This document shows positions 16,022 to 50,139 of a stretch of 64,000 bases of DNA, one piece after another. Each line of letters starts with the position of its first letter. Within the stretch, counting starts at the first letter, position 1. Made by a program: the position numbers and the translations under genes. Below the pieces are notes generated by a model. That model did no database searches. It saw nothing but the letters and a program-made list of their open reading frames with translations, and was not told the DNA's origin. Source of the DNA: Salinibacterium sp. ZJ70 (GTDB lineage Bacteria; Actinomycetota; Actinomycetes; Actinomycetales; Microbacteriaceae); the NCBI RefSeq assembly GCF_011751865.2, contig NZ_CP061770.1:372001-436000 (forward strand), written 5' to 3'.

Positions 16022-16077
16022 GAGGGGTCGCAAACGGCCGCTCTCCCCGGCGTGTCGCCTGCCATTTGCGACCCCTC
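16022..16077. repeat. Palindromic intergenic element, copy A
   Basis: 56-bp inverted repeat between two convergent genes. Its 17-bp arms (GAGGGGTCGCAAACGGC and 16061-16077) differ at one position. The 22-base centre carries GGCGTGTC. It belongs with copies B-E (19133, 42398, 47565, 50084): same length and termini GAGGKGTC/GACMCCTC. It could act as a bidirectional terminator here, but copy D lies between divergent genes. Confidence 0.85.
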
Positions 16078-16106
16078 GGGGATCGGAGGCGGGCGGATGC
16101 GGGTGG

Positions 16107-19013
16107 TCAGCGCCGGAGACGGGTGAGCACCGCATCCAGGCGCTCGACGAAGTAGTCGGCGTCGGCGGCGGTGAGCGTCATCGGCGGCTTGATCTTGAGC
16201 ACGTTCTTGCCGTCGCCCGTCGGCAGCACGATGACGCCCTCAGTGAGCAGCCCTTCGCACACCGCTGTCGCGAGCGCGCCGTCGGCCGTCATCGCGTCTC
16301 GATCCGAGACGAGCTCGAGGCCGAGGTACAGCCCCATGCCGTGCACCGCGCCGACGGACGGATGATGCGCACCGAGCGCGGCGAGACCGTCGCGCAGATG
16401 GTCGCCCACGATGCGGGCGTTCTCGATGAGCTGCTCGTCCTCGAGGATGTCGAGCACGGTGTTGCCGACGACGCAGCTCACGGGGCTGCCGCCCGCCGAC
16501 GAGAAGAAGCTGCCCTCGGCGGCGAACGCCTCGGCGATCGCGCGCGTCGTGATGACGGCGCCGAGCGGCTGGCCGTTGCCGATCGACTTCGCGATCGTGA
16601 TGACATCCGGCACCGCGCCCTGCTGCTCGAACGCCCAGAAGTGGTGGCCGAGACGCCCGAAGCCCACCTGCACCTCATCGGCGATGCAGAGCCCGCCCGC
16701 GGCGCGCACGGCTGCGTAGACGCCCGCGAGGTAGCCGTCGGGAAGCAGCACGCCGCCTCCGTTGCCGAAGACGGCCTCGCCGATGACCCCAGCGGGCGGG
16801 GCGCCCTCGGCGACGAGCTGGGACACGAGCTCCGCGAAATCAGCGACGTATGCGGGGCCCGAGTCCGGGCCGCGATAGGTGCCGCGCACGGGGTTCGGCA
16901 CATCCGCGAGCCGCACCCAGTCGGGGCGCGAGGAGAGCGCGTGCGGGTTGTCGTTGAGGCTCGACGACACCGCATCCGAGGCCATCGACCAGCCGTGGTA
17001 CGCCTCGCGCAGGCCGATCACGGTGGGGCGCCCGGTCGCCGCACGCACGAGGCGGATCGCGAGATCCACGGCCTCGGTGCCGCTGTTGACGAGGAACACC
17101 GTGTCGAGACCCTCCGGGGCGAGGGCGGCGAGGCGCTCGCTGTAGCGCACCAGCTCGCCGTAGTGGAAGCGCGAGTTGGTGTTGAGGCGGCGCCACTGGG
17201 CGGCCGCCGCCTCGGCGATGCGCGGATGTCCGTGGCCGACCGCGGCGACGTTGTTGACGATGTCGAGGTAGCTGCGGCCGTCTTCGTCGAGAAGGTAATG
17301 CCGCCACCCGCGCTCGATGCGCGGCGGGTTCGCGAAGTAGCGCTCGTGCACGCGAGCGAAGGCGGCTTCGCGGCGCTCGAGCAGAGCGGATGCGGGCACC
17401 GCTGTCGAGGAGGGAACCCCCGGATCAGGAGAGGGCGCCTCGATGCCGATCCAGGCGAGCGGGTCGGGGCAGACCTCAGCCCAGAGCGCGCGCTCGCTCG
17501 CGCGGATGCGGGTGGGCGGAGTGAGGCCGGGGAGCCGGGCGGCAGCGATGCGAAGGCGCTCGCCGGAGGTGCCGAGCGGGTCGCCCGCCGCGACAGCGCC
17601 CGTCGTGGCGTCGCGCGCGCCGTCGATGCGCAGCTCCGCCCCGCCGGCGGCGAGCACGAGCGTGCCGTCCTCATCGACGCGCGCCTCACCCGCGAACGGA
17701 GCCGCGAGCGGGGTGCCGGCGTCGAGGAAGAGCGAGACTCCGAGAGAGACGGACCGCGGAGGGGTGGAGCTGAGGGCGATGCCGTGATCGGGGCGGGCTT
17801 CGCCGTGGCGGGTGGCGACGACCGAGCCGGGTTCGCGCGTGCGCTCCGCTTCGGCCCCCGCTGTGCCGCCGTCGAGCCAGGCGCCCGCATCCCACACGGA
17901 GGAGTACACGGACAGGTCGAGGTGCGTGACGGCGGTGCCCTCATGCAGCAGCGACGCGGTGGCAGCGGGGGCGTCGGCGAGCGGGCGCAGGGCGGCGCGT
18001 AGCACCAGCGCGGCTTCATCCATCCTCGTCTCCAGCGCCGTGCGCAGCACCGTCGCGTTGCGATCCACCTCGCGAGAGACGTGCGGATTGTCGTCGTCGA
18101 GGGCGAGCTGGTGGTGAGCGGCGGCCACCAGAACGGCGGCGCGCAGTGTGACGAGCGGCCACAGCGCCCGGATCTCCGCGTCATCGAGCGGCGTGATCGC
18201 GTCGAAGGCGCGCACCTGGTCGAGCACGCGCCAGGGCTCCCCGGGGGTGTGGGCGAGCAGTGTCGTCGTGCCCACCGCGAGCTCGGCGACGCGCCACCCT
18301 GACGACAGGTCGCCGAAGTCGATGACGCCCGAGATGCGCTCGCCCGCGGCATCGGCGACGACGTTGTCATCGGTGATGTCGCCGTGGATGAGCTGCACCG
18401 GCAGACGGTCGGCCAGATCGCGGAGGCGCTCGGTGGCGCGCTCGGCTGCGGCCGTCACGCGGGCGCGCTCGTCGGGGTCCGGGATGCTGGGGGTGAGCTC
18501 GCGAACCAGATCGGAGGCGAGCCTCAGATCCCACCCGGTGCGCGGTGCCTCCTCGTGCGGCAGGCCGGCGAGGGCGGCGGCCACGCGCGCGGCTGTCTCG
18601 CCGAGCGATGTCGCGAGAGCGGGTGAGGGGGGCAGCTCGGTGAGCGGTGTGCCTTCGATCCACGTGACGCAGCGCACGGGGAGCTCGACGCCGTCGACGT
18701 GCGCGAGCGCGAGGTCGTCGCCCGCGAGCGTCTGTCGGGCGGCGGGCACCGCGATCTCGGGTGCCGCGGTCGCGATCCGCTCGAACGCGAGGTGCTGCAG
18801 TCGCAGCTGCTCGATCGGGAGGCCCGGGTTGCCGAGCTTCAGCACGAACCGGCCTTCGGGGGTGTCGACGCGGAAGTTGCGGTCCTGCTGGCTCCCGAGC
18901 TCGACGGCGGTGTCGGCGTCGAGGCCCCACAGCTCACGCAGGACGCGCGTCGCATCCGCGATCCCTACGTTCGGGCGCGGCAAGCTGAAGTCGACGGATT
19001 CAGACGTGGACAC
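16107..19013 (-). CDS. Fusion of APH-type kinase, M23-like domain and class III aminotransferase/phospholyase
   Basis: 968 residues with three parts. Residues 1-330 are an aminoglycoside/choline-kinase fold: Lys59, the catalytic loop HGDITDDN at 210-217 and the metal-binding IDFGD at 231-235. Residues ~345-500 resemble a peptidase M23 beta-barrel, but I see no complete zinc-binding HxH, so it is probably not catalytic. Residues ~545-968 are a PLP enzyme of aminotransferase class III with Lys809 in ITIAKSIGNG. Human hydroxylysine kinase and the AGXT2L phospholyases are the separate counterparts, and kinase/lyase fusions of this kind are known in bacteria. I infer phosphorylation of an amino alcohol (ethanolamine or hydroxylysine type) followed by elimination of phosphate and ammonia. 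GTG start with AAGAGG at 19021-19026; a tetranucleotide array lies upstream. Confidence 0.85.
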   Translation of the reverse strand: MSTSESVDFSLPRPNVGIADATRVLRELWGLDADTAVELGSQQDRNFRVDTPEGRFVLKLGNPGLPIEQLRLQHLAFERIATAAPEIAVPAARQTLAGDDLALAHVDGVELPVRCVTWIEGTPLTELPPSPALATSLGETAARVAAALAGLPHEEAPRTGWDLRLASDLVRELTPSIPDPDERARVTAAAERATERLRDLADRLPVQLIHGDITDDNVVADAAGERISGVIDFGDLSSGWRVAELAVGTTTLLAHTPGEPWRVLDQVRAFDAITPLDDAEIRALWPLVTLRAAVLVAAAHHQLALDDDNPHVSREVDRNATVLRTALETRMDEAALVLRAALRPLADAPAATASLLHEGTAVTHLDLSVYSSVWDAGAWLDGGTAGAEAERTREPGSVVATRHGEARPDHGIALSSTPPRSVSLGVSLFLDAGTPLAAPFAGEARVDEDGTLVLAAGGAELRIDGARDATTGAVAAGDPLGTSGERLRIAAARLPGLTPPTRIRASERALWAEVCPDPLAWIGIEAPSPDPGVPSSTAVPASALLERREAAFARVHERYFANPPRIERGWRHYLLDEDGRSYLDIVNNVAAVGHGHPRIAEAAAAQWRRLNTNSRFHYGELVRYSERLAALAPEGLDTVFLVNSGTEAVDLAIRLVRAATGRPTVIGLREAYHGWSMASDAVSSSLNDNPHALSSRPDWVRLADVPNPVRGTYRGPDSGPAYVADFAELVSQLVAEGAPPAGVIGEAVFGNGGGVLLPDGYLAGVYAAVRAAGGLCIADEVQVGFGRLGHHFWAFEQQGAVPDVITIAKSIGNGQPLGAVITTRAIAEAFAAEGSFFSSAGGSPVSCVVGNTVLDILEDEQLIENARIVGDHLRDGLAALGAHHPSVGAVHGMGLYLGLELVSDRDAMTADGALATAVCEGLLTEGVIVLPTGDGKNVLKIKPPMTLTAADADYFVERLDAVLTRLRR

Positions 19014-19044
19014 GACAACACCTCTTCATGTGCGGGTGTCTCGA

Positions 19045-19050
19045 ATCCTA
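19045..19050 (-). promoter_or_regulatory. Putative -10 element of the fusion gene
   Basis: TAGGAT on the minus strand, 31 bases before the GTG start. A -35 element spaced 17 bp away would fall inside the CTGG array, so array length changes would alter what lies upstream of the core promoter. Confidence 0.4.
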
Positions 19051-19057
19051 GAGAATC

Positions 19058-19107
<50 letters not shown>

Positions 19108-19132
19108 TCGGTGTCGCCGTCGCCTCTCGACT

Positions 19133-19187
19133 GAGGGGTCGCGAATGACGGGTATGACGGCGTGTCATCGGTCATTCGCGACCCCTC
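19133..19187. repeat. Palindromic intergenic element, copy B
   Basis: 55-bp element with perfect 17-bp arms GAGGGGTCGCGAATGAC and 19171-19187; the centre carries GGCGTGTC. Relative to copies A and C, the arm base changes A to G on the left and T to C on the right, a paired change that keeps the stem. Its right edge overlaps the last two bases of the MpaB-like gene, for which it may serve as terminator. Confidence 0.88.
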
Positions 19188-19929
19188 ACAGAAGGGAAGT
19201 GGGGGCGGACGGCATGAGCAGTCGCGAGGGCAGCTGACGGATGCGCCGCGGGGCGAGGTGCGCGATCGCGCGCGCCGTCGCGAGGGCCACGCGTTCGCGC
19301 CGCGGGCGACGGGGGAGTCGGTACGCGTCGCGCACGGCATCCGGCAGCAGCGCTGCGGTCGAGAGGCGTGCGAGCGGCATCGCGAGACGCACCCACCCGG
19401 GCACGGTGCCGCGCGCCGGATGCAGCACCGCGTGCGCGAGAGCGCGCGCGGTGTCGTCGACAGCGAGCGTCGGCAGCATCGCCTCCCAGTACGCCGCGAA
19501 CGCCGCGCGGTCGGCGGGCCACAGCTCGGCGGGCACCTGCAGGCTCGTGCCGAAGCGGGCGGATGCGGCGTACACCTCTTCGGCGACGTCCTCGCGGAGC
19601 GGGGTGAAGAGGGCATCGTGCACGCGCGTGCCCGTGTCGTAGAGCGTCGCCGCGACCCAGAGCTGCGGTTCCGCATCCGTGGCTCCCGGGATCCCGCGGT
19701 GGGCGTCATCCACCCAGCGGGCCGCGGTCTCCGCGACCTCGGGGGAGCCGACACCGAGCGCGTACACGTAGCCGAGGGTGTGCCGAAGCCGCCGCATCGG
19801 ATCGCGGGTGAAGTCGCTGTGCGCAGCGACAGCACGCGCGACGGTCGGATGCGCGAGCTGCAGCAGCAGCGCCGCCCCGCCGCCGAGCACGAGCGAACCC
19901 TCGGCGAGGTAGTCGCGGGCGGTCGTCAT
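19186..19929 (-). CDS. MpaB/DUF2236 family (oxygenase-like) protein
   Basis: 247 residues, mostly helical, with LLQLAHPTVARAVAAHSDF and the conserved RLRHTLGYVYALGVGSPE and DDAHRGI segments of the DUF2236 family. This family includes the rubber oxygenase Lcp and the MpaB oxygenase, which use histidine-coordinated b-type heme. The family His residues (AHP, AHSDF, RHT) are present. The substrate is unknown. I chose ATG 19929; upstream in-frame sequence is low-complexity. The stop codon lies within palindromic element B. The gene is divergent from sucC. Confidence 0.75.
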   Translation of the reverse strand: MTTARDYLAEGSLVLGGGAALLLQLAHPTVARAVAAHSDFTRDPMRRLRHTLGYVYALGVGSPEVAETAARWVDDAHRGIPGATDAEPQLWVAATLYDTGTRVHDALFTPLREDVAEEVYAASARFGTSLQVPAELWPADRAAFAAYWEAMLPTLAVDDTARALAHAVLHPARGTVPGWVRLAMPLARLSTAALLPDAVRDAYRLPRRPRRERVALATARAIAHLAPRRIRQLPSRLLMPSAPTSLL

Positions 19930-20079
19930 CGGCCTATTCTTCTCCGCGGCCCTCGCGTCCGCCTGAGCGGGCCCTTCATCCCTTCGGGCGGATGCGCCGC
20001 CCCTTGGGGAGGGCGACCCGCCGCCCGACGGCGGATTTCGGGGCGGGGGCGGCGTGTCGTCCTCCCTGAGCGAGCGGGG

Positions 20080-20085
20080 TAGAGT
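20080..20085 (+). promoter_or_regulatory. Putative -10 of sucCD
   Basis: TAGAGT. Transcription would start near 20092, just before two tandem inverted-repeat operators (20100-20133), leaving an ~88-base leader to the sucC GTG. Confidence 0.4.
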
Positions 20086-20099
20086 GGCACACGGCCATT

Positions 20100-20133
20100 T
20101 ATCTCGACGTCGAACTATCTCGGCGTCGAGAGA
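20100..20133 (+). promoter_or_regulatory. Two tandem operators upstream of sucC, shared with icd
   Basis: Site 1 (20100-20117) is TATCTCGA-CG-TCGAACTA and site 2 (20116-20133) is TATCTCGG-CG-TCGAGAGA. Both are imperfect copies of the perfect repeat TATCTCGATGTCGAGATA found upstream of icd (35957-35974). A position just after the predicted transcription start fits repression by road-block. Confidence 0.7.
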
Positions 20134-20180
20134 GTTCAGGCCCCCCAACATTTCCGCCGCGATGTGAAAGAAGCGACAGC

Positions 20181-21347
20181 GTGGATCTCTACGAGTACCA
20201 GGCCCGCGACGTGTTCGAGAAGTACGGGGTTCCCGTACTTGCTGGCATCGTCGCAGACACCCCCGCCGAGGCGCGAGCCGCGGCCGAGAAGATCGGCGGC
20301 GTGACCGTCGTCAAGGCGCAGGTCAAGACCGGAGGTCGCGGCAAGGCCGGCGGCGTCAAGGTCGCCAAGACTGCGGATGACGCGGAGGCCGCCGCAGAGG
20401 CGATCCTCGGTCTCGACATCAAGGGCCATGTCGTCAAGCGCGTCATGGTGGCCCAGGGTGCCGACATCGCGGAGGAGTACTACTTCTCGGTGCTGCTCGA
20501 CCGCGCCAACCGCTCGTACCTGAGCCTCGCCTCCTACGAGGGCGGCATGGAGATCGAGCAGCTCGCCGAGGAGCGCCCCGACGCGCTCGCGCGCATCGAG
20601 ATCGACCCGCTCACCGGCATCGACCTCGACAAGGCGAAGGAGATCGCGGTCGCCGCGAAGTTCCCCGCCGAGATCGTCGACAAGGTCGCCCCCGTCTTCG
20701 TGAAGCTCTACGAGGTGTACACGGGCGAAGACGCCACCCTCGTCGAGGTGAACCCGCTCGTGCTCACCGGATCCGGTGAGATCGTCGCGCTCGACGGCAA
20801 GGTCTCGCTCGACGGCAACGCGAGCGAGGTGCGTCACCCCGAGCACGAAGCGCTCGAGGACAAGGACGCCGCAGACCCGCTCGAGGCGAAGGCGAAGGCC
20901 GCGGGCCTCAACTACGTCAAGCTCGACGGCCAGGTCGGCATCATCGGCAACGGCGCGGGCCTCGTCATGTCGACGCTCGACGTCGTCGCGTACGCCGGTG
21001 AGAACCACGGCGGCGTCAAGCCCGCCAACTTCCTCGACATCGGAGGCGGCGCCTCGGCCACGGTCATGGCCGACGGCCTCGACGTCATCCTCGGCGACGA
21101 GCAGGTCAAGAGCGTGTTCGTGAACGTCTTCGGCGGCATCACCTCGTGCGTCGCCGTCGCGGAGGGCATCGTGAAGGCGCTGGAGATCCTCGGCGACGCG
21201 GCCACCAAGCCGCTCGTCGTCCGTCTCGACGGCAACCAGGTGGAGGAGGGCCGCGCGATCCTCGCGGCCGCCAACCACCCGCTCGTCACCGTTGCCACCT
21301 CGATGGACCAGGGCGCCGACAAGGCCGCCGAGCTGGCTGCGAAGTAA
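20181..21347 (+). CDS. sucC: Succinyl-CoA ligase, beta subunit
   Basis: 388 residues, normal for the family. The N-terminal ATP-grasp domain starts [19 protein letters not shown] and includes [16 protein letters not shown]. The C-terminal flavodoxin-like domain carries [12 protein letters not shown] and [19 protein letters not shown], the region that meets the alpha-subunit phosphohistidine. Works with SucD to make ATP or GTP from succinyl-CoA in the TCA cycle. GTG start behind a GAAAGAAG ribosome site. Thirteen bases separate it from sucD, so they form one operon, probably controlled by the operators at 20100-20133. Confidence 0.98.
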
Positions 21348-21354
21348 GGACTAG

Positions 21355-22251
<897 letters not shown>

Positions 22252-22273
22252 TTCCGCGGATCCGTCCGCATGC

Positions 22274-22310
22274 GACGCGCCCCCATCCGGTTGCCGGATC
22301 GGGGCGCGTC
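22274..22310 (+). terminator. Terminator hairpin after sucCD
   Basis: Outer 10-bp stem GACGCGCCCC with 22301-22310, an inner 6-bp stem ATCCGG/CCGGAT, and a 3-base loop, starting 22 bases after the sucD stop. Confidence 0.85.
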
Positions 22311-22357
22311 GTCGTTCAGGCAGGTTCGACGCGGGGGTGGCGCTCTAGGCTGTCGGC

Positions 22358-23935
22358 ATGGCTTCGACCCCCGCCCGCCGCCTCGGCGCCGTGCTCGCCA
22401 CCGTTCTGAGCGCGTCGCTTCTGCTGTCCGGCTGTACGCTCATCCCGCTGTTCGGCCCCGGGGGCGGCAGCTCCAACGAGGTGCGCCCCGGTCCGACGCG
22501 CGAGACGGTCGACCCCGATCTCGAGCGCTTCTACACGCAGGAGCTCGACTGGCGCTCTGACTGCGGCACGGAGCGCGTCGACTGCACGGATGTCACGGTG
22601 CCGCTCGACTGGTCGGAGCCGACGGGTGAGACGATCACGATCGCCATCGCGCGCCATCGAGCCTCGGGCACACCGATCGGCTCGCTGCTCGTGAACCCGG
22701 GCGGACCGGGCGGCTCAGGCTTCGACTTCGTTGCGTATTCGGCTCCCTACATCGTGAGCTCTGAGGTGCTGAAGCGATACGACGTCATCGGCTTCGACCC
22801 ACGCGGCGTCGGCGGCTCGACGGGCATCGAGTGCTTCGCCGACGACGCGGACAAGGATGAGTACCTCTACGGCACCTTCGCGAACGCCTACGGCACGCAG
22901 GGCTGGCTCGACGAGCTCACGGCGCGCGCCGCAGACTGGACCGCCTCGTGTGTGAGCAAGACGGGCGAGCTGCTCGGTCACCTCGATGCCGCATCCGTCG
23001 CGCGCGATATGGACGTCATCCGCGCGCTCCTCGGCGACACGAAGCTGAACTACCTGGGCTACTCGTACGGCACCTACCTCGGCACCATGTACGCCGAGCT
23101 GTTCCCGAAGAAGGTGGGTCGGATGGTGCTCGACGGCGCCGTCGACCCGGCCGTCGGCGACCTCGAGAGCCTCGTGACGCAGATGGCGGGCTTCGACTCG
23201 GCGCTGCGCGCCTACATGGAGTGGTGCCTGCCGCAGTCGGACTGCCCGTTCCGCGGAGGGGTGGATGCGGCGCTCGCGACGGTGCGGCAGATGCTCGACA
23301 CGGTGGATGCCCGCAAGCTCACCGCCTCCGATGGGCGCGTGCTCGACTCGGCGACAGTCGCGACGGCGATCATCTACACGCTGTACTCCGAGAGCTCGTG
23401 GCCCGAGCTCTCGACGCTCTTCACACAGCTGCGCAAGATGGATGCCGACACGGTGTTCCTCTTCGCCGACGCCTACAACGACCGCGACAGCCTGGGCGAA
23501 TACAGCGGCAACTCGATGGAGATCTACACGAGTGTGATCTGCAACGAGGGCGACCTCGCGACGGATGGTGTGAGCACCCTCGACGGCATCGCGCAGATCG
23601 ACGCGGCCGCGCCGATCCTCGGCCGGTACGCGGCGTACGACGATTACGCGGTGCTCGATGTGGTGTGCTCGAACTGGCCGTTCCCGGTCGCCGACCTCCC
23701 CACGACGTTCACCGCGGAGGGCGCTGCGCCCATCATGGTGATCGGCACGACGAATGACCCCGCCACCCCCTATGCCAACGCGGTCGCACTGGCGGAGCAG
23801 CTGTCGAGCGGCTTCCTCGTGACCTATGAGGGCGAGGGGCACACGATCTACGGCAACGGCGTCCGCTGCATCGACGACATCGTCGATGCGTACCTCATCT
23901 CGGGCACTGTGCCGTCGGGCGATCCACGGTGCTGA
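22358..23935 (+). CDS. Secreted alpha/beta-hydrolase lipoprotein, tripeptidyl aminopeptidase type
   Basis: 525 residues. Signal peptide with lipobox LLSGC near residue 25. The oxyanion region VNPGGPGGSG, nucleophile elbow YLGYSYGTYLG and the late His in YEGEGHTIYG give a serine hydrolase triad. The TAP-like C-terminal domain is that of Streptomyces SlpD/SlpE and tripeptidyl aminopeptidases, so the likely role is removal of N-terminal peptides from proteins outside the cell. ATG 22358 follows TAGGCT (22346-22351) by 6 bases. The end overlaps the ptsI start by 7 bases. Confidence 0.88.
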   Translation: MASTPARRLGAVLATVLSASLLLSGCTLIPLFGPGGGSSNEVRPGPTRETVDPDLERFYTQELDWRSDCGTERVDCTDVTVPLDWSEPTGETITIAIARHRASGTPIGSLLVNPGGPGGSGFDFVAYSAPYIVSSEVLKRYDVIGFDPRGVGGSTGIECFADDADKDEYLYGTFANAYGTQGWLDELTARAADWTASCVSKTGELLGHLDAASVARDMDVIRALLGDTKLNYLGYSYGTYLGTMYAELFPKKVGRMVLDGAVDPAVGDLESLVTQMAGFDSALRAYMEWCLPQSDCPFRGGVDAALATVRQMLDTVDARKLTASDGRVLDSATVATAIIYTLYSESSWPELSTLFTQLRKMDADTVFLFADAYNDRDSLGEYSGNSMEIYTSVICNEGDLATDGVSTLDGIAQIDAAAPILGRYAAYDDYAVLDVVCSNWPFPVADLPTTFTAEGAAPIMVIGTTNDPATPYANAVALAEQLSSGFLVTYEGEGHTIYGNGVRCIDDIVDAYLISGTVPSGDPRC

Positions 23936-25581: not shown

Positions 25582-25632
25582 GAGCTGCGCGCCACCCCGG
25601 CGTCGGAGGCGCGGCGACGTAGGCTACGGGGC

Positions 25633-26871: not shown

Positions 26872-26880
26872 GCTGAGCCA

Positions 26881-41894: not shown

Positions 41895-41901
41895 GGCCGG
41901 C

Positions 41902-42354: not shown

Positions 42355-42397
42355 GACGTCCACCCTCTCAGCGCCCCCTTGGACGACGCTGGATGCC

Positions 42398-42453
42398 GAG
42401 GTGTCAGAACACGCCGTATGGCGCAGCCCGCATGCGGCGTGTTCTGACACCTC
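42398..42453. repeat. Palindromic intergenic element, copy D
   Basis: 56-bp element with perfect 19-bp arms (42398-42416 with 42435-42453), extended by ATG/CAT. Outer half GAGGTGTCAG is shared with copy E. GGCGTGT also occurs, here in the right arm. It sits between the divergent FMN-binding lipoprotein and DHFR-like genes, so it cannot be the terminator of either. Confidence 0.85.
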
Positions 42454-42493
42454 AAGGGGGAGGGGTGTCGGTGGGGGTGCGTAGCGTCGCGGC

Positions 42494-43027
42494 ATGACGA
42501 GGACTCACTACTACACGGCGTCGACGCTCGACGGGTTCATCGCGACGCGCGACCATTCGCTCGACTGGCTGCTGAAGCAGCCGTTCGACGAGCACGGGCC
42601 GATGAACTACGAGAGCTTCGTCGCCGACATCGGGGCGCTCATCATGGGTGCGTCGACGTACGCGTGGGTGCTGGAGCACGACGCGGGCTGGTCGTACACG
42701 CAGCCGGCCTTCGTGCTCACGCATCGGGAGTTCCCGGTGCCGGATGGCGCGGATGTGCGGTTCCGGTCGGGTGACGTCGCGGCGGTGCACGCGGAGGTGA
42801 TCGCCGCTGCGGAGGGGCGCGATGTGTGGGTCGTGGGCGGCGGTGACCTCGCGGGGCAGTTCGCGGATGCGGGCCTGCTCGACGAGGTGTGGGTGCAGTT
42901 CGCCCCGGTGACGATCGCGGAGGGGCAGCCGCTGCTGCCCCGGTCGCTCGACCTGGAGCTCGTGGATCACGCGCGCAATGGCGGATTCCTGTGTGCGCGC
43001 TACCGGGTGGTGACCCCCGCCGAATAA
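42494..43027 (+). CDS. Dihydrofolate reductase-fold (RibD C-terminal domain) protein
   Basis: 177 residues, RibD_C/DHFR-like fold: HYYTASTLDGFIATRDHSLDWL at the start, IGALIMGASTYAWVL, and DVWVVGGGDLAGQF for NADPH binding. Such stand-alone proteins are common in actinobacteria, with unknown substrates; the name dihydrofolate reductase is by fold, not proven activity. ATG 42494 follows TAGCGT (42482-42487) by 6 bases. A second, more distant paralogue lies at 62552. Confidence 0.85.
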   Translation: MTRTHYYTASTLDGFIATRDHSLDWLLKQPFDEHGPMNYESFVADIGALIMGASTYAWVLEHDAGWSYTQPAFVLTHREFPVPDGADVRFRSGDVAAVHAEVIAAAEGRDVWVVGGGDLAGQFADAGLLDEVWVQFAPVTIAEGQPLLPRSLDLELVDHARNGGFLCARYRVVTPAE

Positions 43028-43072
43028 GCCGTGAAGGGGGCGCGAGCACCCCAGGTCACGAGGTTGTTAAGG

Positions 43073-43345
43073 GTCGACGTGCGCGTCGAGAACGACGTCA
43101 ACGCCGCGGCCCTCCGCGCGTTCCAGGTGCTCACGGCCGACGCCCAGCACGTGGTCATCGGCGGCGGCATCAGCCGCCTCGGCAACGAGCTCATGCAGGG
43201 CGTGCTGGCCGTGATCGCCCAGTGGGAGAGCGACTCCACGTTCGTCGCTACGCTGGGCCTCGGGGAGCGGCTGCGGCTGCTGCCCGCCCATTCCCGGCCG
43301 CGGCTGTGGGGGCCGCGCTCGTGGGGGCCCCGCCCGTTGCGACCG
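43073..43345 (+). pseudogene. Remnant of a ROK-family sugar kinase
   Basis: Frame 2 reads VRVENDVNAAALRAF and then directly HVVIGGGISRLGNELM. In intact ROK kinases these two conserved segments are about 130 residues apart, so the middle of the gene (catalytic Asp region and zinc motif) is deleted. The typical C-terminal end AAAVGAALVGA follows only in another frame (about 43290-43330), indicating a frameshift. The N-terminal ATP-binding part is missing too, as the DHFR-like gene ends at 43027. Its place in front of nagB suggests a former N-acetylglucosamine kinase or glucokinase. Confidence 0.8.
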
Positions 43346-43372
43346 AACCGAACCATGTACGAGGAAGTGCTG

Positions 43373-44158
43373 ATGGCTGAAGTCGTGATCCTGCCCGGAA
43401 CCCCCGCGGAGGCGAAGGCGGCCGCGGGTGAGCTCGCTGCGGATCTGATCGCGCGGGTTGTGGCAGCCAAGCCGGAGGCGGTGCTGGGCCTCGCAACCGG
43501 ATCCACGCCGTTGCCGGTATGGGAGGCGCTGTCGCGCCGCAAGCTCGACTGGAGCCGGGTGCGCGGGTTCGCGCTGGATGAGTACATCGGCCTGCCGGCA
43601 GGCCACCCGGAGAGCTACCGCGCGGTGATCACGCGCGAAGTCGTCGACACTCTCGGCCTCGATCCCGACCTCGTCCGCGTGCCTGGGGACGACGGCGGGG
43701 AGATCGCAACCGCGGGACAGCGCTACGAGGCCGCGATCGCCGCGGCCGGGGGTGTCGACATCCAGGTGCTCGGCATCGGGCGCACGGGGCACATCGGCTT
43801 CAACGAGCCGGGATCGTCGTTCGCGTCGCGCACCCGCGTGAAGACCCTCACCGAGCAGACGCGCATCGACAACGCACGGTTCTTCGATTCGCTGGACGAC
43901 GTTCCGCGACACTGCCTCACGCAGGGCCTCGGCACGATCCTGGATGCGCGGGAGCTCGTGCTGCTGGCGTTCGGCGAGGCGAAGGCGGATGCCGTGGCCG
44001 GGGCTGTGGAGGGGCCGGTGTCGGCGTCGCTGCCGGGTTCGGCGATCCAGATGCACCCGGAGGTGACGGTGATCCTCGATGAGGCGGCGGCCTCGAAGCT
44101 GCGATTCGCCGACTACTACCGCTTCGCCTGGGACAACCGCCCCGACTGGGCGAGCTGA
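43373..44158 (+). CDS. nagB: Glucosamine-6-phosphate deaminase
   Basis: 261 residues. Converts glucosamine-6-phosphate to fructose-6-phosphate and ammonia. Visible: the loop ATGSTPLPVWEAL, catalytic FALDEYIGLPAGHPESY, and LGIGRTGHIGFNEPGSSF. I chose ATG 43373 with GAGGA at 43361-43365; an open frame continues upstream but only into the ROK pseudogene, so a longer start would be an artefact. It acts after NagA, encoded convergently just downstream. Confidence 0.95.
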   Translation: MAEVVILPGTPAEAKAAAGELAADLIARVVAAKPEAVLGLATGSTPLPVWEALSRRKLDWSRVRGFALDEYIGLPAGHPESYRAVITREVVDTLGLDPDLVRVPGDDGGEIATAGQRYEAAIAAAGGVDIQVLGIGRTGHIGFNEPGSSFASRTRVKTLTEQTRIDNARFFDSLDDVPRHCLTQGLGTILDARELVLLAFGEAKADAVAGAVEGPVSASLPGSAIQMHPEVTVILDEAAASKLRFADYYRFAWDNRPDWAS

Positions 44159-44202
44159 GCCCGTCCGTCAGGTGCGACTGAGCACAACGTGGCGGGCTCC
44201 GC

Positions 44203-45339
44203 TCAGCGCAGGCGCGCGCCCGCGGCCCACACCGCGGTGACGCGGCCCTCGGCGTCGAGCGCCACCGCATCCGCGGCGTAGCCCGGCTCGAGCAGACCGA
44301 GGCGCTCGCCTTCGCCGATCGCGCGCGCCGGCACCGCTGTGACGGCGGCGACGGCCACCGACCACGACAGCCCGACCACGTTCACGGCACGGCGCAGCGC
44401 CGCATCCAGGGTGAGAGTGGAGCCCGCGATCGTGTCGGTGCCGGACAGCAGCGCGAGGCCGTCGCGCACCGTCACGTTGAGCGAGCCGATGCGGTAGTCC
44501 CCGTCTTCCGAGCCTGCGGCGGCCATGCCGTCGGTGATGAGCGCGACGCGACCGGGAGCCTCCCGGAGCGCAACCGCGGCAACCGACTCGTGCACGTGGT
44601 GCCCGTCGAGCACGAGCTCGAGCGTCACGCGCTCGTCCTCGAGCGCCGCGACTACGGGGCCCGGGGCGCGGTGGTGGATGCCGTTCATGGCGTTGAAGGC
44701 ATGGGTGAGCAGCGTCGCCCCCGCGTCGAACGCGCGCCGCGCCGTCTCGAAGCCGGCCTCCGTGTGGCCCACCGCGACGCGCACCCCGGCGCGAACGAAC
44801 ACCTCGATCGCATCCATCGCACCCGGCAGCTCCGGGGCGATCGTGATCTGCCGCAGCGTGCCGTGCGAGGCCGCGAGCAGCCCGTCGACGTCCTCCGGGT
44901 CCGGCGAGCGCAGGAAGTCCGCATTGTGGGCGCCCCGACGCTCGGCGGCGAGGAACGGGCCCTCCAGGTGGGAGCCCAGCACGAGCGGGTCGGAGCCCGC
45001 GAGCTCTGCGATCTCCGCGAGGCTCGACCGCAGCGAGACGAGCGGGTTGGCCACGAGCGAGATCACGGATCGCGTGGTGCCGAGTGCGCGGTGCGTCGCG
45101 AGCGCGGCGATCAGCTCATCGCCGCCGTCATCGAACGCGTGCCCGCCGCCCCCGTGGCCGTGGATGTCGATGAACCCCGGCGTGAGCCGCGCGCCCGCGA
45201 GATCGACCGTCTCATCCGCGGCCGGGCGACCGGATCCGCGCCCCACCGCGGCGATGGCATCGCCGTCGAACAGCACCCAGCCGTCGGGGGTCTCGCCGCG
45301 CTCGTCGGTGACCAGGGCGGAGTGAAGGAGCGTCGTCAC
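44203..45339 (-). CDS. nagA: N-acetylglucosamine-6-phosphate deacetylase
   Basis: 378 residues, amidohydrolase superfamily. Metal-binding IDIHGHGGGGHAF, LGSHLEGPFLA, VGHTEAGF, THAFNAMN and catalytic Asp in LITDGMAAAG are all present. Removes acetate from GlcNAc-6-P, producing the substrate of NagB. GTG 45339 follows TACGCT (45346-45351, minus strand) by 6 bases, which decides the start; in-frame sequence further upstream is low-complexity. Convergent with nagB, so the pathway pair is not one operon. Confidence 0.95.
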   Translation of the reverse strand: MTTLLHSALVTDERGETPDGWVLFDGDAIAAVGRGSGRPAADETVDLAGARLTPGFIDIHGHGGGGHAFDDGGDELIAALATHRALGTTRSVISLVANPLVSLRSSLAEIAELAGSDPLVLGSHLEGPFLAAERRGAHNADFLRSPDPEDVDGLLAASHGTLRQITIAPELPGAMDAIEVFVRAGVRVAVGHTEAGFETARRAFDAGATLLTHAFNAMNGIHHRAPGPVVAALEDERVTLELVLDGHHVHESVAAVALREAPGRVALITDGMAAAGSEDGDYRIGSLNVTVRDGLALLSGTDTIAGSTLTLDAALRRAVNVVGLSWSVAVAAVTAVPARAIGEGERLGLLEPGYAADAVALDAEGRVTAVWAAGARLR

Positions 45340-45395
45340 ACGCTCAGCGTAGAACCCGCCCCCCACTGCTGCCGCGCAGGCCCGCGGCGCCCCGC

Positions 45396-46247
45396 TCAGC
45401 GGAAGATGATGGTGCGCGCGCCGTCGAGCAGCACGCGGTCCTCCGAGAACCACTTCACGGCCTGCGTGAGCGTGCGGCTCTCCTCGTCCTGGCCGATCGC
45501 CACCAGCTGCTGCACGGTGCGCGAGTGATCCACACGCACGATGTTCTGCTCGATGATCGGACCCTCGTCGAGGTCGCTCGTCACGAAGTGCGCCGTCGCG
45601 CCGATGATCTTCACGCCGCGGGCGTGCGCCTGCTTGTACGGGTTGGCGCCCTTGAAGCCAGGCAGGAACGAGTGGTGGATGTTGATGATGCGGCCGGCGA
45701 GCCGGTCGCACAGCTCGGGGGAGAGGATCTGCATGTAGCGCGCGAGCACGACGAGTTCGATGTCGTGCTCCTCGACGACGTCGAGGATGCGCTGCTCGAA
45801 CGCGGCCTTCTCCTCAGCGTTCGTCACCGGCTGGGATTCGAACGGAACCCCGTAGAACCCCGCCATGTCGCCGAGGTCCGGGTGGTTGGAGAGCACGAGC
45901 GGGATGTCGACACCCAGCTGCCCGGCGCGCTGGCGGAACAGCAGATCGTTGAGGCAGTGGCCCGCCTTCGACACGAGCACGAGCGTGCGCAGCGGCCGGC
46001 CCACCTCGTCGATCGTCCACGTCATCCCGTACCGGTCGACGACGGGCTGGAGAGCCGTCTCGAACGCGCTGCGCTCGGTGTCGGACTCCACCTGCAGGCG
46101 CATGAAGAAGGTGCCGGTGTCGTCGCTCGAGAACTGCTGCGACTCGGTGATGTTCCCCTGGGCCTCCACGATCGCTCCGCTGATGGCGTGCACGATGCCG
46201 GGCTTGTCTTCGCAGACGATGGTGAGGGTCCAGTGGTTGGCGGTCAT
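45396..46247 (-). CDS. purU: Formyltetrahydrofolate deformylase
   Basis: 283 residues. Hydrolyses 10-formyl-THF to formate and THF, balancing the one-carbon pool used by PurN and PurH. An N-terminal ACT domain (LTIVCEDKPGIVHAISGAI) is followed by a PurN-like catalytic domain with INIHHSFLPGFKGANPY and TSDLDEGPIIEQ. The ATG follows TAGGCT (46256-46261, minus strand) by 8 bases. Divergent from the MFS gene at 46320; both promoters lie in a 72-base gap. Confidence 0.96.
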   Translation of the reverse strand: MTANHWTLTIVCEDKPGIVHAISGAIVEAQGNITESQQFSSDDTGTFFMRLQVESDTERSAFETALQPVVDRYGMTWTIDEVGRPLRTLVLVSKAGHCLNDLLFRQRAGQLGVDIPLVLSNHPDLGDMAGFYGVPFESQPVTNAEEKAAFEQRILDVVEEHDIELVVLARYMQILSPELCDRLAGRIINIHHSFLPGFKGANPYKQAHARGVKIIGATAHFVTSDLDEGPIIEQNIVRVDHSRTVQQLVAIGQDEESRTLTQAVKWFSEDRVLLDGARTIIFR

Positions 46248-46319
46248 AGCCCTTCAGCCTATTGCGTCGCGCCGCATCCACTCTCCTGCTGAAGGCATGG
46301 TCGCGCGTATGCTCTCCCG

Positions 46320-47513
46320 GTGAGCAGTACGAACGACGCCGGCGGTTTCCCCTACTTCAAGCTGCTCGTGCTCTCCGGCGCGATCTTCGCGTCGGTGTCG
46401 AGCGAGTTCCTGCCGACCGGTCTGCTGCCCGAGATGGCGGCGGAGCTGGGCGTCAGCGAATCCCAGATCGGCCTGCTCATCACCGTGTTCGCGGGAACCG
46501 TCGTGCTCACCACGGCGCCCCTCACGGCGCTCACTCGCCCGTACTCGCGCAAGTGGCTCATGGTGGCGCTGCTTGCCGTGTTCGCGATCACCAACGTGCT
46601 GTGTGCGATCGCGCCGTCGTACGAGATGCTCATGATCGCCCGCATCCTGGGTGGTGCCGCCCACGGCCTCTTCTGGGCCGTCACCGGTCCGTACGCCGCC
46701 CTGCTCGTGCCCCGGCATCAGCTGGCCCGCGCGATCTCGGTGACGAACGCGGGAGGAACGGCCGCGTTCATCCTGGGCGTGCCGTTCGGCACCTTCCTCG
46801 GGCACGCGCTCGGCTGGCGGATGGCGTTCGCGGCGATGGCCGTGATCGTCTTCGTGTTCGCGGTGTTCGTGGTCGTGTACCTGCCGCCGGTGTCGCACCT
46901 CGTGCGCCTCGCGACCGGGGAGATCGCGGTCCCCGCCCACAAGGACCGCACGCTTCCGGCGGTGCTCGCGGTCGCCCTCACGGTGCTCGTCGTCGCGATC
47001 GGCCACAACGCGTTCTACACCTACATCGCGGCGTGGTCGATCCAGATCGGCCATGTGGATCCGGAGTGGGTGAGCGCTCTGCTGCTCGCCTACGGCGCCG
47101 CGGGGGCGGTGGGTCTCGCGCTCGGCGGTGCCTTCGGCGACCGCTACCCGCGGGCGACGGTGGCGATCTCGGTCGCGGGAGTCTCGCTGTCGATCGCCGC
47201 GCTCGCATGGCTCGGCACGTCGGCGATTCCCGTGACGATCGGCATGATCGTGTGGAGTGCGTGCTTCGGCGGCTTCCCCGCGCTCATGCACGCGCGGAAC
47301 CTCCACGCCGCGTCTCCCAACATCCGCGATTACGCCGCCGCATGGCTGACGATCGCCTTCAATGCCGCGATCGGCGGCGGCGCGCTGCTCGGCGGGCTCA
47401 TCATCGACGGTCTCGGCATGCAGGCGCTTCCGTGGATCGCGGCGGGCATCGTCGCTGTGGGCTTCTTCGTGGCGCTGTTCGCCAGTCGCGAGCGGATGCG
47501 CGTACGGCGCTGA
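46320..47513 (+). CDS. MFS exporter of the DHA1 (AraJ/YdhP) type
   Basis: 397 residues, 12 predicted helices. The start SSEFLPTGLLPEMAAELGVSE and the block LTRPYSRKWLM plus ILGGAAHGLFWAVTGPYAA are typical of the DHA1 group with AraJ, PbuE and chloramphenicol exporters. PbuE-type members export purine bases and ribonucleosides; the neighbourhood of purU makes this possible, but nothing in the sequence settles the substrate. GTG 46320 follows TATGCT (46308-46313) by 6 bases. Confidence 0.85.
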   Translation: MSSTNDAGGFPYFKLLVLSGAIFASVSSEFLPTGLLPEMAAELGVSESQIGLLITVFAGTVVLTTAPLTALTRPYSRKWLMVALLAVFAITNVLCAIAPSYEMLMIARILGGAAHGLFWAVTGPYAALLVPRHQLARAISVTNAGGTAAFILGVPFGTFLGHALGWRMAFAAMAVIVFVFAVFVVVYLPPVSHLVRLATGEIAVPAHKDRTLPAVLAVALTVLVVAIGHNAFYTYIAAWSIQIGHVDPEWVSALLLAYGAAGAVGLALGGAFGDRYPRATVAISVAGVSLSIAALAWLGTSAIPVTIGMIVWSACFGGFPALMHARNLHAASPNIRDYAAAWLTIAFNAAIGGGALLGGLIIDGLGMQALPWIAAGIVAVGFFVALFASRERMRVRR

Positions 47514-47564
47514 CCCCTCGGCCCGCCGCCCTGCGATGGGGCTCAGGCAGCCCGTTCCTCCGGT

Positions 47565-47619
47565 GAGGGGTCGCAAATGACGTTCGCCACGGCGTGTCGG
47601 CCGTCATTTGCGACCCCTC
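47565..47619. repeat. Palindromic intergenic element, copy C
   Basis: 55-bp element with perfect 18-bp arms (GAGGGGTCGCAAATGACG and 47602-47619) and a 19-base centre carrying GGCGTGTC. It lies 50 bases after the MFS stop and ~100 bases before the glyA promoter, so it may end MFS transcription. Confidence 0.88.
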
Positions 47620-47720
47620 CGCGCGTTGTCAGGGGCGCGGGGTCTGGCCCCGCTCGCTCGCAGAGAGCCAGCCGACCCATCCGCCGTCATCCGACGGAGT
47701 GATCCCTCACATGCGTCGCG
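47620..47720. other. Non-coding spacer before the glyA promoter
   Basis: I see no gene here. GGGGTCTGGCCCC makes a small inverted repeat near 47640, and CCGTCATCCGACGG one near 47685. The open frame crossing it has no ribosome site and overlaps the riboswitch. Confidence 0.5.
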
Positions 47721-47726
47721 TAGACT
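47721..47726 (+). promoter_or_regulatory. Putative -10 of glyA-folD
   Basis: TAGACT; transcription would start near 47733, at the 5' edge of the ZTP aptamer. Confidence 0.6.
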
Positions 47727-47730
47727 GGTC

Positions 47731-47831
47731 GCGTCGCAACTGGCGTTCGGATGGGTCACCATCGGGGAGCGGCGAACACGTGAATGATGGCCGTACGCCT
47801 GGGCCGTCCACCCCCGTCACCGGGTAGTTTT
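47731..47831 (+). promoter_or_regulatory. ZTP riboswitch (pfl motif) controlling glyA-folD
   Basis: The aptamer has the conserved GCAACTGGCG (47737-47746), CGGGGAGCGG (47763-47772) and, after a variable linker, ACGCCTGGGC (47795-47804), the order and spacing of the pfl RNA. It senses ZMP/ZTP, which build up when 10-formyl-THF is short, and raises expression of one-carbon genes. A small hairpin CCCG-TCAC-CGGG (47813-47824) followed by TAGTTTTCT looks like the transcription terminator of the expression platform. The glyA ribosome site AAGGAG is at 47843-47848. Confidence 0.88.
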
Positions 47832-47853
47832 CTCGTGAGCATAAGGAGCGCCA

Positions 47854-49146
47854 GTGTCCGCTGAATCCACCTTCAACGCACCTCTTTCCGAGGTCGACCC
47901 CGAGATCGCAGCAGTGCTCGAGCAGGAGCTCGCACGCCAGCGCGACACGCTCGAGATGATCGCGAGCGAGAACTTCGTGCCGCGCGCGGTTCTCGAGTCG
48001 CAGGGCTCGGTTCTCACCAACAAGTACGCCGAGGGCTACCCCGGCCGTCGCTACTACGGCGGCTGCGAGTACGTCGACGTCGCCGAGTCGCTCGCGATCG
48101 AGCGCGCGAAGAGCCTGTTCGGCGCCGCGTTCGCCAACGTGCAGCCTCACTCGGGAGCCTCGGCCAACGCCGCCGTGCTGTCGGCGATCGCGACCCCCGG
48201 CGACCGCATCCTGGGCCTCGAGCTCGCCCACGGCGGCCACCTGACCCACGGCATGAAGCTCAACTTCTCCGGCAAGCTCTACGAGGCCCACGCCTACGGC
48301 GTCGACCCGGAGACCTTCCAGGTCGACATGGATGTCGTGCGCGAGCGCGCCCTCGAGGTGAAGCCGCAGGTCATCATCGCCGGCTGGTCGGCCTACCCGC
48401 GCCAGCTCGACTTCGCCGCGTTCCGTGCGATCGCCGACGAGGTGGGCGCGACCCTCTGGGTCGACATGGCGCACTTCGCCGGCCTCGTGGCTGCGGGCCT
48501 GCACCCCTCGCCCGTGCCGCACGCGCACGTCGTGAGCTCGACGGTGCACAAGACGATCGGCGGCCCCCGCTCGGGCTTCATCCTCACCAACGACGCCGAC
48601 ATCGCGAAGAAGATCAACTCGAACGTCTTCCCCGGTCAGCAGGGCGGCCCGCTCATGCACGTGATCGCCGCGAAGGCGACCGCGTTCAAGCTCGCCGCAT
48701 CCGACGAGTTCCGCGACCGCCAGGTGCGCACCCTGCGCGGCGCCGCGATCCTCGCCGAGCGTCTCGTGCAGGATGACGCGAAGGCCGCGGGCATCTCGGT
48801 GCTCACGGGCGGAACGGATGTGCACCTGGTGCTCGTCGACCTGCGCGACTCGGAGATCACCGGCCAGGAGGCGGAGGACCGCCTGCACGAGGCCGGCATC
48901 ACGGTCAACAAGAACTCGGTTCCGAACGACCCGCGCCCGCCGATGGTCACTTCGGGCGTGCGCATCGGCACCCCGGCGCTCGCGACCCGCGGCTTCGGCG
49001 ATGAGGAGTTCACCGAGGTGGCTGACATCATCGCCCTCGCGCTGCAGCCGGGTGCCGACCTCGCCGCGCTCCGCGAGCGCGTCACGGTGCTCGCCCGCAA
49101 GTTCCCCCTCTACGAGGGCCTCACGTCGCCGGGAAGCTGGGCGTGA
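47854..49146 (+). CDS. glyA: Serine hydroxymethyltransferase
   Basis: 430 residues. PLP enzyme that converts serine and THF to glycine and 5,10-methylene-THF. Visible: [16 protein letters not shown] near the N terminus, the PLP lysine in [15 protein letters not shown], and [23 protein letters not shown] 47854 has AAGGAG 5 bases upstream. Under the ZTP riboswitch. The stop overlaps the folD start (GTGA), making an operon for consecutive steps. Confidence 0.98.
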
Positions 49147-50024
49147 CCGCGCAGCTGCTCGACGGCCTCGCCACCTCGGCGGCGATCAAGGCCGAGCTGA
49201 AGGTTCGCGTGGCGGCGCTCGCGGAGAAGGGCATCGTGCCCGGTCTCGGCACGCTGCTCGTGGGCTCCGATCCGGGCTCGGTGAGCTACGTCGGCGGCAA
49301 GCACCGCGACTCGGCCGAGGTGGGCATCCGCTCCATCCGCGAGGAGCTCCCGGCGGATGCGACCGAGGCGGATGTGCGCGCAGCGATCGAGCGTCTCAAC
49401 GCCGACCCCGAGGTCACGGGCTACATCGTGCAGCTGCCGCTGCCGAAGGGCATCGACGAGAATGCGATGCTCGAGCTCATCGATCCCGCGAAGGATGCCG
49501 ACGGACTGCACCCCACCAACCTGGGCCGTCTCGTGCTGGGTGTCGACGGGGAGCTCGATTCGCCGCTGCCGTGCACGCCCGCTGGCGTGGTCGAGCTGCT
49601 GCGTCGCCACGACGTGCCGATCGCCGGCAAGCACGTGACGATCATCGGACGCGGCCTCACGGTGGGCCGCCCGCTCGGCCTGGTGTTCACCCGCAAGGGC
49701 GTGGATGCGACGGTGACGCTCACGCATTCGCGCACCGCGGATCTTGCCGCCGAGGTGCGCCGTGCGGACATCGTGGTCGCTGCTCTCGGTGTGCCGCACT
49801 TCGTGCAGGCCGAGTGGATCAAGCCGGGCGCTGCCGTGCTCGACGTGGGCGTGACGCGCGTCGGCACGACCGAGTCGGGTCGTGCGCGCCTGCACGGCGA
49901 CGTGCATCCGGATGTCGCGGATGTCGCTGGCTGGCTGTCGCCGAACCCCGGCGGCGTCGGACCGATGACGCGTGCCCTGCTCATCGCGAACGTCGTGGAC
50001 GCTGCGGAGCGCGCCGCCCGCTGA
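49143..50024 (+). CDS. folD: Methylene-THF dehydrogenase/methenyl-THF cyclohydrolase
   Basis: 293 residues. Turns 5,10-methylene-THF into 10-formyl-THF, the donor for PurN and PurH. Active-site lysine in [30 protein letters not shown], and cofactor loop [13 protein letters not shown]; the usual Ser after GR is Gly here. The GTG overlaps the glyA stop by four bases. A hairpin (50042-50075) closes the unit. Confidence 0.97.
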
Positions 50025-50041
50025 CGCGCGCTCCATTCGCA

Positions 50042-50075
50042 CGAAGGCCCCACCGCATCCGCGGCGGGGCCTTCG
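50042..50075. terminator. Terminator after folD
   Basis: Stem CGAAGGCCCC (50042-50051) with 50066-50075, continued inward by CCGC/GCGG after one mismatch, with an ATCC loop. It belongs to the recurring CGAAGG...CCTTCG terminator type of this window. Confidence 0.85.
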
Positions 50076-50083
50076 GCCTTCCT

Positions 50084-50139
50084 GAGGTGTCAGTTCGTGC
50101 CGCGTCCGGCGTTCGCCACGCGGCACGAACTGACACCTC
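50084..50139. repeat. Palindromic intergenic element, copy E
   Basis: 56-bp element with perfect 21-bp arms (50084-50104 with 50119-50139) and a 14-base centre. Shares GAGGTGTCAG termini with copy D. Its centre shares CGTTCGCCACG with copy C. It lies between convergent folD and the HesB-like gene, behind a separate terminator. Confidence 0.88.

What the first reader, a model, noticed from the sequence alone, without database searches (positions are those of the whole stretch)
16022..50139. Family of five 55-56-bp intergenic palindromes with shared termini and covarying stems
Copies at 16022-16077, 19133-19187, 42398-42453, 47565-47619 and 50084-50139 are all 55 or 56 bp, start with GAGGKGTC and end with GACMCCTC. 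Three form a GAGGGGTCGC type with GGCGTGTC conserved in the unpaired centre; two form a GAGGTGTCAG type. Arms are perfect over 17-21 bp in four copies. Copy B changes both sides of one stem pair (A-T to G-C), and the D and E arms differ inside but remain perfectly paired, so selection or spread acts on the folded form. Termination alone does not explain them: copy D lies between divergent genes and copy E behind a separate terminator. I know no named element with this sequence. Candidates are a REP/MITE-like mobile repeat, a nucleoid or regulator binding site, or a family of small structured RNAs.
Basis: seen in the sequence. Interest (0 to 1): 0.82.

Follow-up and report, generated by a model that had tools for sequence, protein, structure and literature searches.

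The report
Dispersed palindromes paired with resident nuclease
The five palindromes belong to two families of fixed-length DNA repeats scattered through this bacterium's genome, and each family also brackets its own gene for a probable DNA-cutting enzyme, which looks like an undescribed repeat-plus-nuclease partnership.

Summary
The five palindromes are real and belong to two genome-wide families: G-type (17 exact copies) and T-type (27); the reversed pattern gives 0. No RAYT-type transposase matches in 9 of 9 genus genomes, and a hairpin-RNA role is not supported. Comparing neighbours across genomes exposed a partner. In this genome each family brackets one intact nuclease gene (G-type at G000:2512478-2513359, T-type at 2320670-2321566), with an AbiEi-like N-terminal domain and an I-Bth0305I/Vsr-like EDxHD catalytic domain. 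In related nuclease loci the two gene flanks share sequence in 50 of 74, against 0 of 288 and 0 of 450 controls. Arms diverge with the nuclease and are genome-specific even at orthologous sites. One prediction from nuclease flanks held; a second held in one genome but met a counterexample, G005. Best reading: the palindromes are half-site-spacer-half-site targets of the resident nuclease, forming a REPIN-like population with an unrelated enzyme. Binding, cutting and nuclease-driven copying are inferred, not shown.

The parts
16022..16077 (+). G-type palindrome, copy A (56 bp; the other 16 exact G-type copies are 55 bp), between convergent genes
19133..19187 (+). G-type palindrome, copy B (55 bp); overlaps the stop-codon end of the minus-strand gene 19186-19929 (PF09995)
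42398..42453 (.). T-type palindrome, copy C (56 bp), variant arms AACACGCC, between genes called divergent
47565..47619 (+). G-type palindrome, copy D (55 bp), between MFS gene and glyA (same strand); site empty in G003, G004, G006 and G007
50084..50139 (.). T-type palindrome, copy E (56 bp), between folD (+) and a minus-strand gene; G007 has a different, longer palindrome after folD

Best explanation
Each palindrome is a recognition target made of two half-sites (about 20 bp each) around a spacer of fixed length, for a resident nuclease made of an AbiEi-like DNA-binding domain and an EDxHD (I-Bth0305I/Vsr-like) catalytic domain. The nuclease is encoded in a unit palindrome-gene-palindrome, one gene per palindrome family in this genome, and is inherited largely vertically. 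The other copies are a dispersed, non-coding population kept and renewed by that enzyme, as REPINs are thought to be by RAYTs. SHOWN by sequence: dispersal, fixed length, matching flanks around the gene, nuclease-specific and genome-specific arms, persistence of sites with changed arms. INFERRED: that the nuclease binds the arms as a dimer, that it cuts or nicks in the spacer, and that repair from other copies spreads the palindromes and homogenises their arms.
Against: No binding, cleavage or transposition data. No target duplications (0 of 44 for k>=4). G005 has 11 GAGGCGTC copies and G001 five G-type copies without a recognised cognate nuclease. 31 of 80 nuclease relatives show no strict flanking palindrome on either side and 24 of 74 no shared flank score >=18. 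The genome of L236 holds only the flanking pair. In G-type copies the arms mispair in 8% of cells. Preference for gene 3' ends (120 of 138 within 150 bp) also fits a host function. Independent insertion into the same intergenic space could mimic persistence of orthologous sites. From general knowledge, a hydrolytic EDxHD nuclease has no known strand-transfer activity, so a copying mechanism is missing.
Confidence: 0.68

Rival explanations
1. The palindromes are operator-like or chromosome-organising sites: the AbiEi-nuclease protein binds them as a regulator or nucleoid-like protein, and the sites arise by mutation and selection, not by copying.
For: AbiEi-like N-terminal domain; symmetric half-sites; sites at orthologous places with changed arms.
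Against: Catalytic-type residues are invariant in 38 of 38; copies sit near gene 3' ends rather than promoters; no shared function among neighbours was seen (the latter partly cut); independent origin of matching ~55-bp palindromes at 44 sites is implausible without copying (inference); site D is empty in four sisters.
Confidence: 0.13
2. They are bidirectional transcription terminators or 3'-end stabilisers kept by the host.
For: 61 of 138 between convergent genes and 120 of 138 within 150 bp of a gene 3' end; very stable predicted folds.
Against: 0 of 138 have a T-run after the stem on either strand; a separate terminator-like hairpin precedes copy E (seen by eye); terminators need no fixed length, genome-specific arms or matching copies around one nuclease gene; the T-type centre is not selected to pair. 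A secondary terminator effect is not excluded.
Confidence: 0.09
3. Solo copies are scars: a mobile palindrome-nuclease-palindrome unit inserted many times and its gene was lost by recombination between the two flanking copies, like solo LTRs.
For: The two copies around one gene often share the spacer (for example L064, L200, L232); broken nuclease genes occur (G001 pieces L283/L287; 5 of 80 loci with an early stop).
Against: G- and T-nucleases keep neighbours between species, so the gene moves rarely; one intact gene per family against 17-27 other copies in G000; spacers differ between most solo copies.
Confidence: 0.08
4. Ordinary REP/RAYT or MITE of a resident insertion sequence.
For: Repetitive, palindromic, extragenic.
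Against: PF01797 no match at E<=0.001 in 9 of 9 genus genomes; no lone G-type arms in a BLAST with copy D (T-type not tried); no target duplications.
Confidence: 0.02

Closest known systems
REPIN-RAYT (REP-associated tyrosine transposase) systems
   Same: Dispersed extragenic inverted-repeat units with conserved ends and variable spacer; partner genes single-copy with phylogeny largely congruent with species; several types per genome, a cluster of each beside its own gene (PMC3116915, abstract part and passages seen).
   Different: Partner is an AbiEi-EDxHD nuclease, not a Y1 transposase; host phylum Actinomycetota; tens of copies here against 430 doublets in that paper; arms change in concert at persisting sites.
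I-Bth0305I-type EDxHD homing endonucleases
   Different: Gene free-standing between ordinary genes as far as read; N-terminal domain AbiEi-like; the target-like palindromes are multicopy and flank the gene instead of being interrupted by it.
AbiEi antitoxin (type IV toxin-antitoxin) and the DUF559 / MTES_1575 REase families
   Same: N-terminal AbiEi-like domain; C-terminal MTES_1575/DUF559 nuclease domain; MTES_1575 REase is called a Vsr REase in PMC3710099 (passages seen).
   Different: Of five proteins, 3 fall below the DUF559 cut-off and 2 just above; all 5 are below the MTES_1575 cut-off. No published palindrome link found.
GTAG/CGTC-tagged REPs
   Same: Small palindromes mostly downstream of genes; [quoted passage not shown]
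   Different: 45-65 bp here against 20-40 bp; different termini; that paper's main text has 0 words beginning Actinobacter, Microbacter, Clavibacter, Arthrobacter or Leifsonia.

Membership tests
REP/REPIN-RAYT | Dispersed extragenic palindromic units with conserved ends | tested here: met
   44 copies; 2 of 138 copies from 13 genomes inside called genes
REP/REPIN-RAYT | Partner gene is a Y1 (HUH) transposase, PF01797 | tested here: not met
   no match at E<=0.001 in 9 of 9 genus genomes; control rings in 5 of 14
REP/REPIN-RAYT | Partner gene single-copy, flanked by its repeat type, vertical | tested here: met
   met by a different enzyme:
REP/REPIN-RAYT | GTAG/GGAG or CGTC tag at the base of the hairpin | not tested
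   termini GAGGKGTC read from sequence; no formal test
EDxHD nuclease (I-Bth0305I/Vsr-like) | Catalytic-domain fold | tested here: met
EDxHD nuclease (I-Bth0305I/Vsr-like) | Conserved E-D-x-H-D residues | tested here: met
   E200, D233, H250, D259 invariant in 38 of 38; residue-by-residue equivalence to 3r3p not checked
EDxHD nuclease (I-Bth0305I/Vsr-like) | Cuts its long target | not testable with these tools
   needs biochemistry
Homing endonuclease gene | Gene interrupts its own target site; allelic empty target | tested here: inconclusive
   gene lies between two whole palindromes; nuclease loci without the gene in sisters were not searched for
Type IV toxin-antitoxin (AbiEi/AbiEii) | AbiEi-like domain | tested here: met
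Type IV toxin-antitoxin (AbiEi/AbiEii) | Adjacent AbiEii toxin gene | not tested
   no family search of neighbours was run for it
Intrinsic terminator | GC hairpin followed by T-run | tested here: not met
   0 of 138 with >=5 T in the 9 nt after the stem on either strand
MITE of an insertion sequence | Target-site duplication | tested here: not met
   0 of 44 for k>=4; 1 of 44 at k=2 and 3

The most novel reading that the evidence does not exclude
A new class of genome-wide repeat system in Actinomycetota: AbiEi-EDxHD nucleases, each recognising its own 45-65-bp two-half-site palindrome, maintain populations of these palindromes at gene 3' ends and continually rewrite their arms in place (nuclease-driven gene conversion) as the nuclease's specificity drifts, so that ancestral sites persist while the recognition sequence turns over between sister species.
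Probability: 0.45. Interest if true: 0.93.

Novelty: categorically new. Interest (0 to 1): 0.87.

Why it matters
REP-like palindromes with a known partner have been tied to one enzyme class, RAYT transposases. Here an unrelated nuclease, found in many Microbacteriaceae and Arthrobacter relatives and known to me only by domain names, is tied to its own palindromes. That gives a testable job for many DUF559/AbiEi-type genes, offers dozens of nuclease-target pairs whose specificity can be read from genomes, and makes concerted evolution of dispersed DNA sites directly testable.

Tried and rejected
RAYT/Y1 transposase as partner: no match in 9 of 9 genomes. Recurrent neighbour gene within the window's genome alone: 186 genes clustered, only ABC transporters, dehydrogenases and the like; the nuclease appeared only across genomes (whose printed list was cut in the middle, so some small clusters were not seen). 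Target duplications: none. RNA role: weak covariation in G-type, unselected centre in T-type, no T-run; Rfam at gathering scores found none of the palindromes in window 15000-51000. Prediction that GAGGCGTC palindromes would be confined to G004: failed (G005 11, G002 4, G001 2, G008 one unpaired chance-like match). The AGTACGTACTT test was not fully blind: two copies, in G002 and G006, had already been seen. The family-wide scan (20 of 150 genomes) overstates spread: many single matches lack pairing arms and 6 of 150 genomes have a control match. Structure search: the only Foldseek hit at E<=0.001 is a mitoribosomal protein at TM 0.28; the 3r3p ranking rests. Literature: ten searches listed no paper that I recognised as linking palindromes to DUF559/MTES_1575/AbiEi nucleases; only open-access PMC papers are held, and the primary I-Bth0305I paper is not.

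Error found and mended: loci that the genome search gives for minus-strand matches are not turned round, so searches used the wrong strand for those. In one search this touched 2 of 88 loci (L260, L274), and the 13 genus loci in it had been chosen by me from 28, favouring loci with a visible flank signal. One search repeats all of this with strands set right and without that choice: 30 genus loci (two of them, L283 and L287, pieces of one broken gene), 22 DUF559 loci, and 103 loci merged after dropping 2 duplicates. Its figures replace those (which were 9 of 22; 53, 43 and 33 of 88; r 0.36). One search gives controls for the larger windows. The strict finder gave 1 of 22.
Full report
WHAT IS THERE. 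The five reported sequences are exactly as described. In the genome that holds the window (G000, 2,844,936 bp, one contig) the pattern GAGGKGTC-N30-45-GACMCCTC has 44 places and its reversed control none. They fall into two families: 17 G-type copies (16 of 55 bp, one of 56 bp) with GAGGGGTCGC-AAATGAC-like arms and an off-centre CGGCGTGTC (one copy with CGGCGCGTC), and 27 T-type copies (all 56 bp) with 20-bp arms GAGGTGTCAGTTTGTGCCGC and a free 16-bp centre. BLAST with copy D adds four G-type-like places with altered termini, three of which the palindrome finder also sees. No target duplications (0 of 44 at k>=4); the base before a T-type copy is C/T in 27 of 27 and after it A/G in 27 of 27.

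WHERE THEY SIT. With a home-made gene caller, 23 of 44 lie between convergent, 17 between same-direction and 4 between divergent genes. Over 138 copies in the stretches fetched from 13 genomes (not every copy of each genome was fetched, for example 18 of 28 for G115 and 19 of the G006 set): 61 convergent, 63 same-direction, 11 divergent, 3 at stretch edges. In one search, with a slightly different set of 138, 120 are within 150 bp of a gene 3' end, 25 overlap a stop codon, 2 lie inside called genes, and none is followed by a T-run. Copy D is between an MFS gene and glyA on the same strand, not between divergent genes.

THE SAME DESIGN, DIFFERENT ARMS, IN RELATIVES. In nine genomes of the genus the counts are 44, 5, 0, 1, 8, 0, 25, 14 and 1. 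In 150 family genomes, sets of three or more outside the genus appear in G115 (28), G056 (16), G144 (6) and G082 (3); many single matches look like chance. Length stays at 55 or 56 bp and the termini stay, but arm positions 9-18 are private to each genome: leave-one-out scoring assigns 121 of 121 copies of the seven larger sets to their own genome, among 4 (G-type) or 3 (T-type) choices.

FINDING THE PARTNER. RAYTs were not found. Clustering the genes near palindromes in 13 genomes gave, beside orthologues of ordinary genes, one small family present once in each of four genomes (printed list partly cut) and always between two palindromes. These proteins of about 300 aa have weak MTES_1575/DUF559 matches. 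tblastn showed a second such gene in the window's genome that my caller had missed (L070), between two G-type copies with altered termini, and one in L134. So in G000 the G-type palindromes bracket one nuclease (2512478-2513359) and the T-type palindromes another (2320670-2321566), 40% identical to each other. In both units the gene's stop codon overlaps the first bases of the downstream palindrome. A third pair is likely: the nuclease at 1722523-1723419 has a flanking palindrome that matches the solo palindrome at L046 1309-1361 over its whole 53 bp with a few mismatches.

IS THE PAIRING GENERAL? A scan of species genomes with the five-protein profile kept 80 of 112 loci, mostly Microbacteriaceae with some Arthrobacter and Paenarthrobacter. 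A palindrome finder that knows no motif saw a 40-70-bp palindrome upstream in 36, downstream in 32 and on both sides in 19 of 80; 31 of 80 have neither. Independently of any palindrome rule, the 300 bp upstream and 200 bp downstream share a sequence scoring at least 18 in 50 of 74 testable loci, not in 24; none of 288 cross-locus pairs and none of 450 within-locus pairs do. In the genus 23 of 30 nuclease loci and 18 of 22 DUF559 loci reach that score in somewhat larger windows, against 1 of 453 and 2 of 450 control pairs. With a slightly looser finder on 103 merged loci, 60 have an upstream, 49 a downstream and 36 both palindromes; of 688 control windows of each size 2 have one. Arm similarity rises with nuclease similarity (Mantel r 0.45; 500 permutations at most 0.08; n=70). 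In other hosts the flanking arms recur: a 46-bp family with 6 and 3 copies in two Rathayibacter genomes and a 49-bp family with 2 and 4 copies in two Paenarthrobacter genomes, the 2 being only the flanking pair, and 0 in two Arthrobacter genomes searched with it; controls 0.

GENUS TEST. G-nuclease (over 60% identity to G000's) is found in G000, G004 and G007, T-nuclease (over 55%) in G000, G004 and G006, among the 30 loci compared. G-type copies: 17, 8, 14 with the nuclease; 5 (G001), 1 (G003), 1 (G008, letters not shown, so type unknown) and 0 in G002, G005, G006 without it. GAGGTGTC copies: 27 (G000) and 25 (G006); none among the matches shown for other genomes. Two further families were then looked for. 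The AGTACGTACTT family, seen around nucleases of G002, G003 and G008 in variant form and as single copies in G002 and G006, was found 9, 4 and 12 times in G002, G003 and G008, once in G006 and not in the other five. The GAGGCGTC family, read from the T-nuclease flanks of G004, was found 13 times in G004 (three of them around the nuclease), but also 11 times in G005, 4 in G002, 2 in G001 and once, unpaired, in G008, none of which has a recognised T-nuclease. That is a partial failure; recent loss of the nuclease would explain it but was not tested.

CONCERTED RENEWAL. Thirteen pairs of palindromes, at eight distinct sites, lie between orthologous gene pairs (both neighbours at least 45% identical) in different species; one site is the T-nuclease locus. 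In ten pairs the type is the same, and in 19 of 20 leave-one-out comparisons each copy fits its own genome's arms better than the sister's. In three the type differs (G in one species, T in the other). The nuclease genes keep neighbours: both sides for the G-nuclease in G000, G004 and G007; at least one side for the T-nuclease in G000, G004, G006 and the L181 genome, while their flanking arms differ. Sites and genes thus seem inherited while the recognition sequence turns over; repeated insertion into the same gap is the alternative. Gains or losses also occur: site D has no palindrome in G003, G004, G006 and G007, which keep the same MFS (70-72% identity) and glyA neighbours.

MECHANISM AND LIMITS. 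I favour nuclease-target pairs that form a REPIN-like population (0.68 for the target reading; about 0.45 for nuclease-driven copying and conversion). How a hydrolytic nuclease would seed new sites without target duplications is unknown; copying during break repair or replication is a guess. A secondary effect on transcript ends is possible. Ten literature searches listed no report of such a pairing that I recognised, but subscription papers are not held.

Noticed in passing
window 47726-47811 (+): ZMP/ZTP riboswitch (RF01750, 56.3 bits) between palindrome D and glyA.
   Followed up: no
L046 1309-1361 and L278 (G000:1722523-1723419): A solo 53-bp palindrome AATCGTGCC... whose arms match the palindrome beside a third nuclease gene of this genome: a probable third pair.
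   Followed up: partly
L117 1572; L118 2735; L119 2226; L141 3099; L122 204; L169 748: Other ~53-58-bp near-perfect palindromes with unrelated termini near the main ones, perhaps further families with their own nucleases.
   Followed up: partly
L262, L263, L269 (flanks of the G-nuclease): Copies that flank the G-nuclease carry altered termini (GAGGGGAC, GCGTCCCCTC or GCGCCCCCTC) in 3 of 3 species, unlike the 17 exact dispersed copies of G000; the exact-terminus search biases this comparison.
   Followed up: no
L045 2010-2065: T-type copy with two different arms (TTTGTGCC left, GGCGTGTT right) inside a long called ORF that resembles a helicase by eye.
   Followed up: no
L078-L099 (DUF559 loci of the genus): 18 of 22 more distant DUF559 genes also share sequence between their two flanks, such as CTCCTGCATTT and CTCCTTGATTTGGGA, so the pairing may span the wider family.
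   Followed up: partly
L172, L176, L178, L179 (G006); L101, L102, L108 (G056); L115 (G144); L148 (G007): Pairs of palindromes separated by only 17-122 bp.
   Followed up: no
L292, downstream of folD: In G007 the gap after folD, where copy E lies in this genome, carries a different, longer palindrome with ~26-bp arms (read by eye).
   Followed up: no
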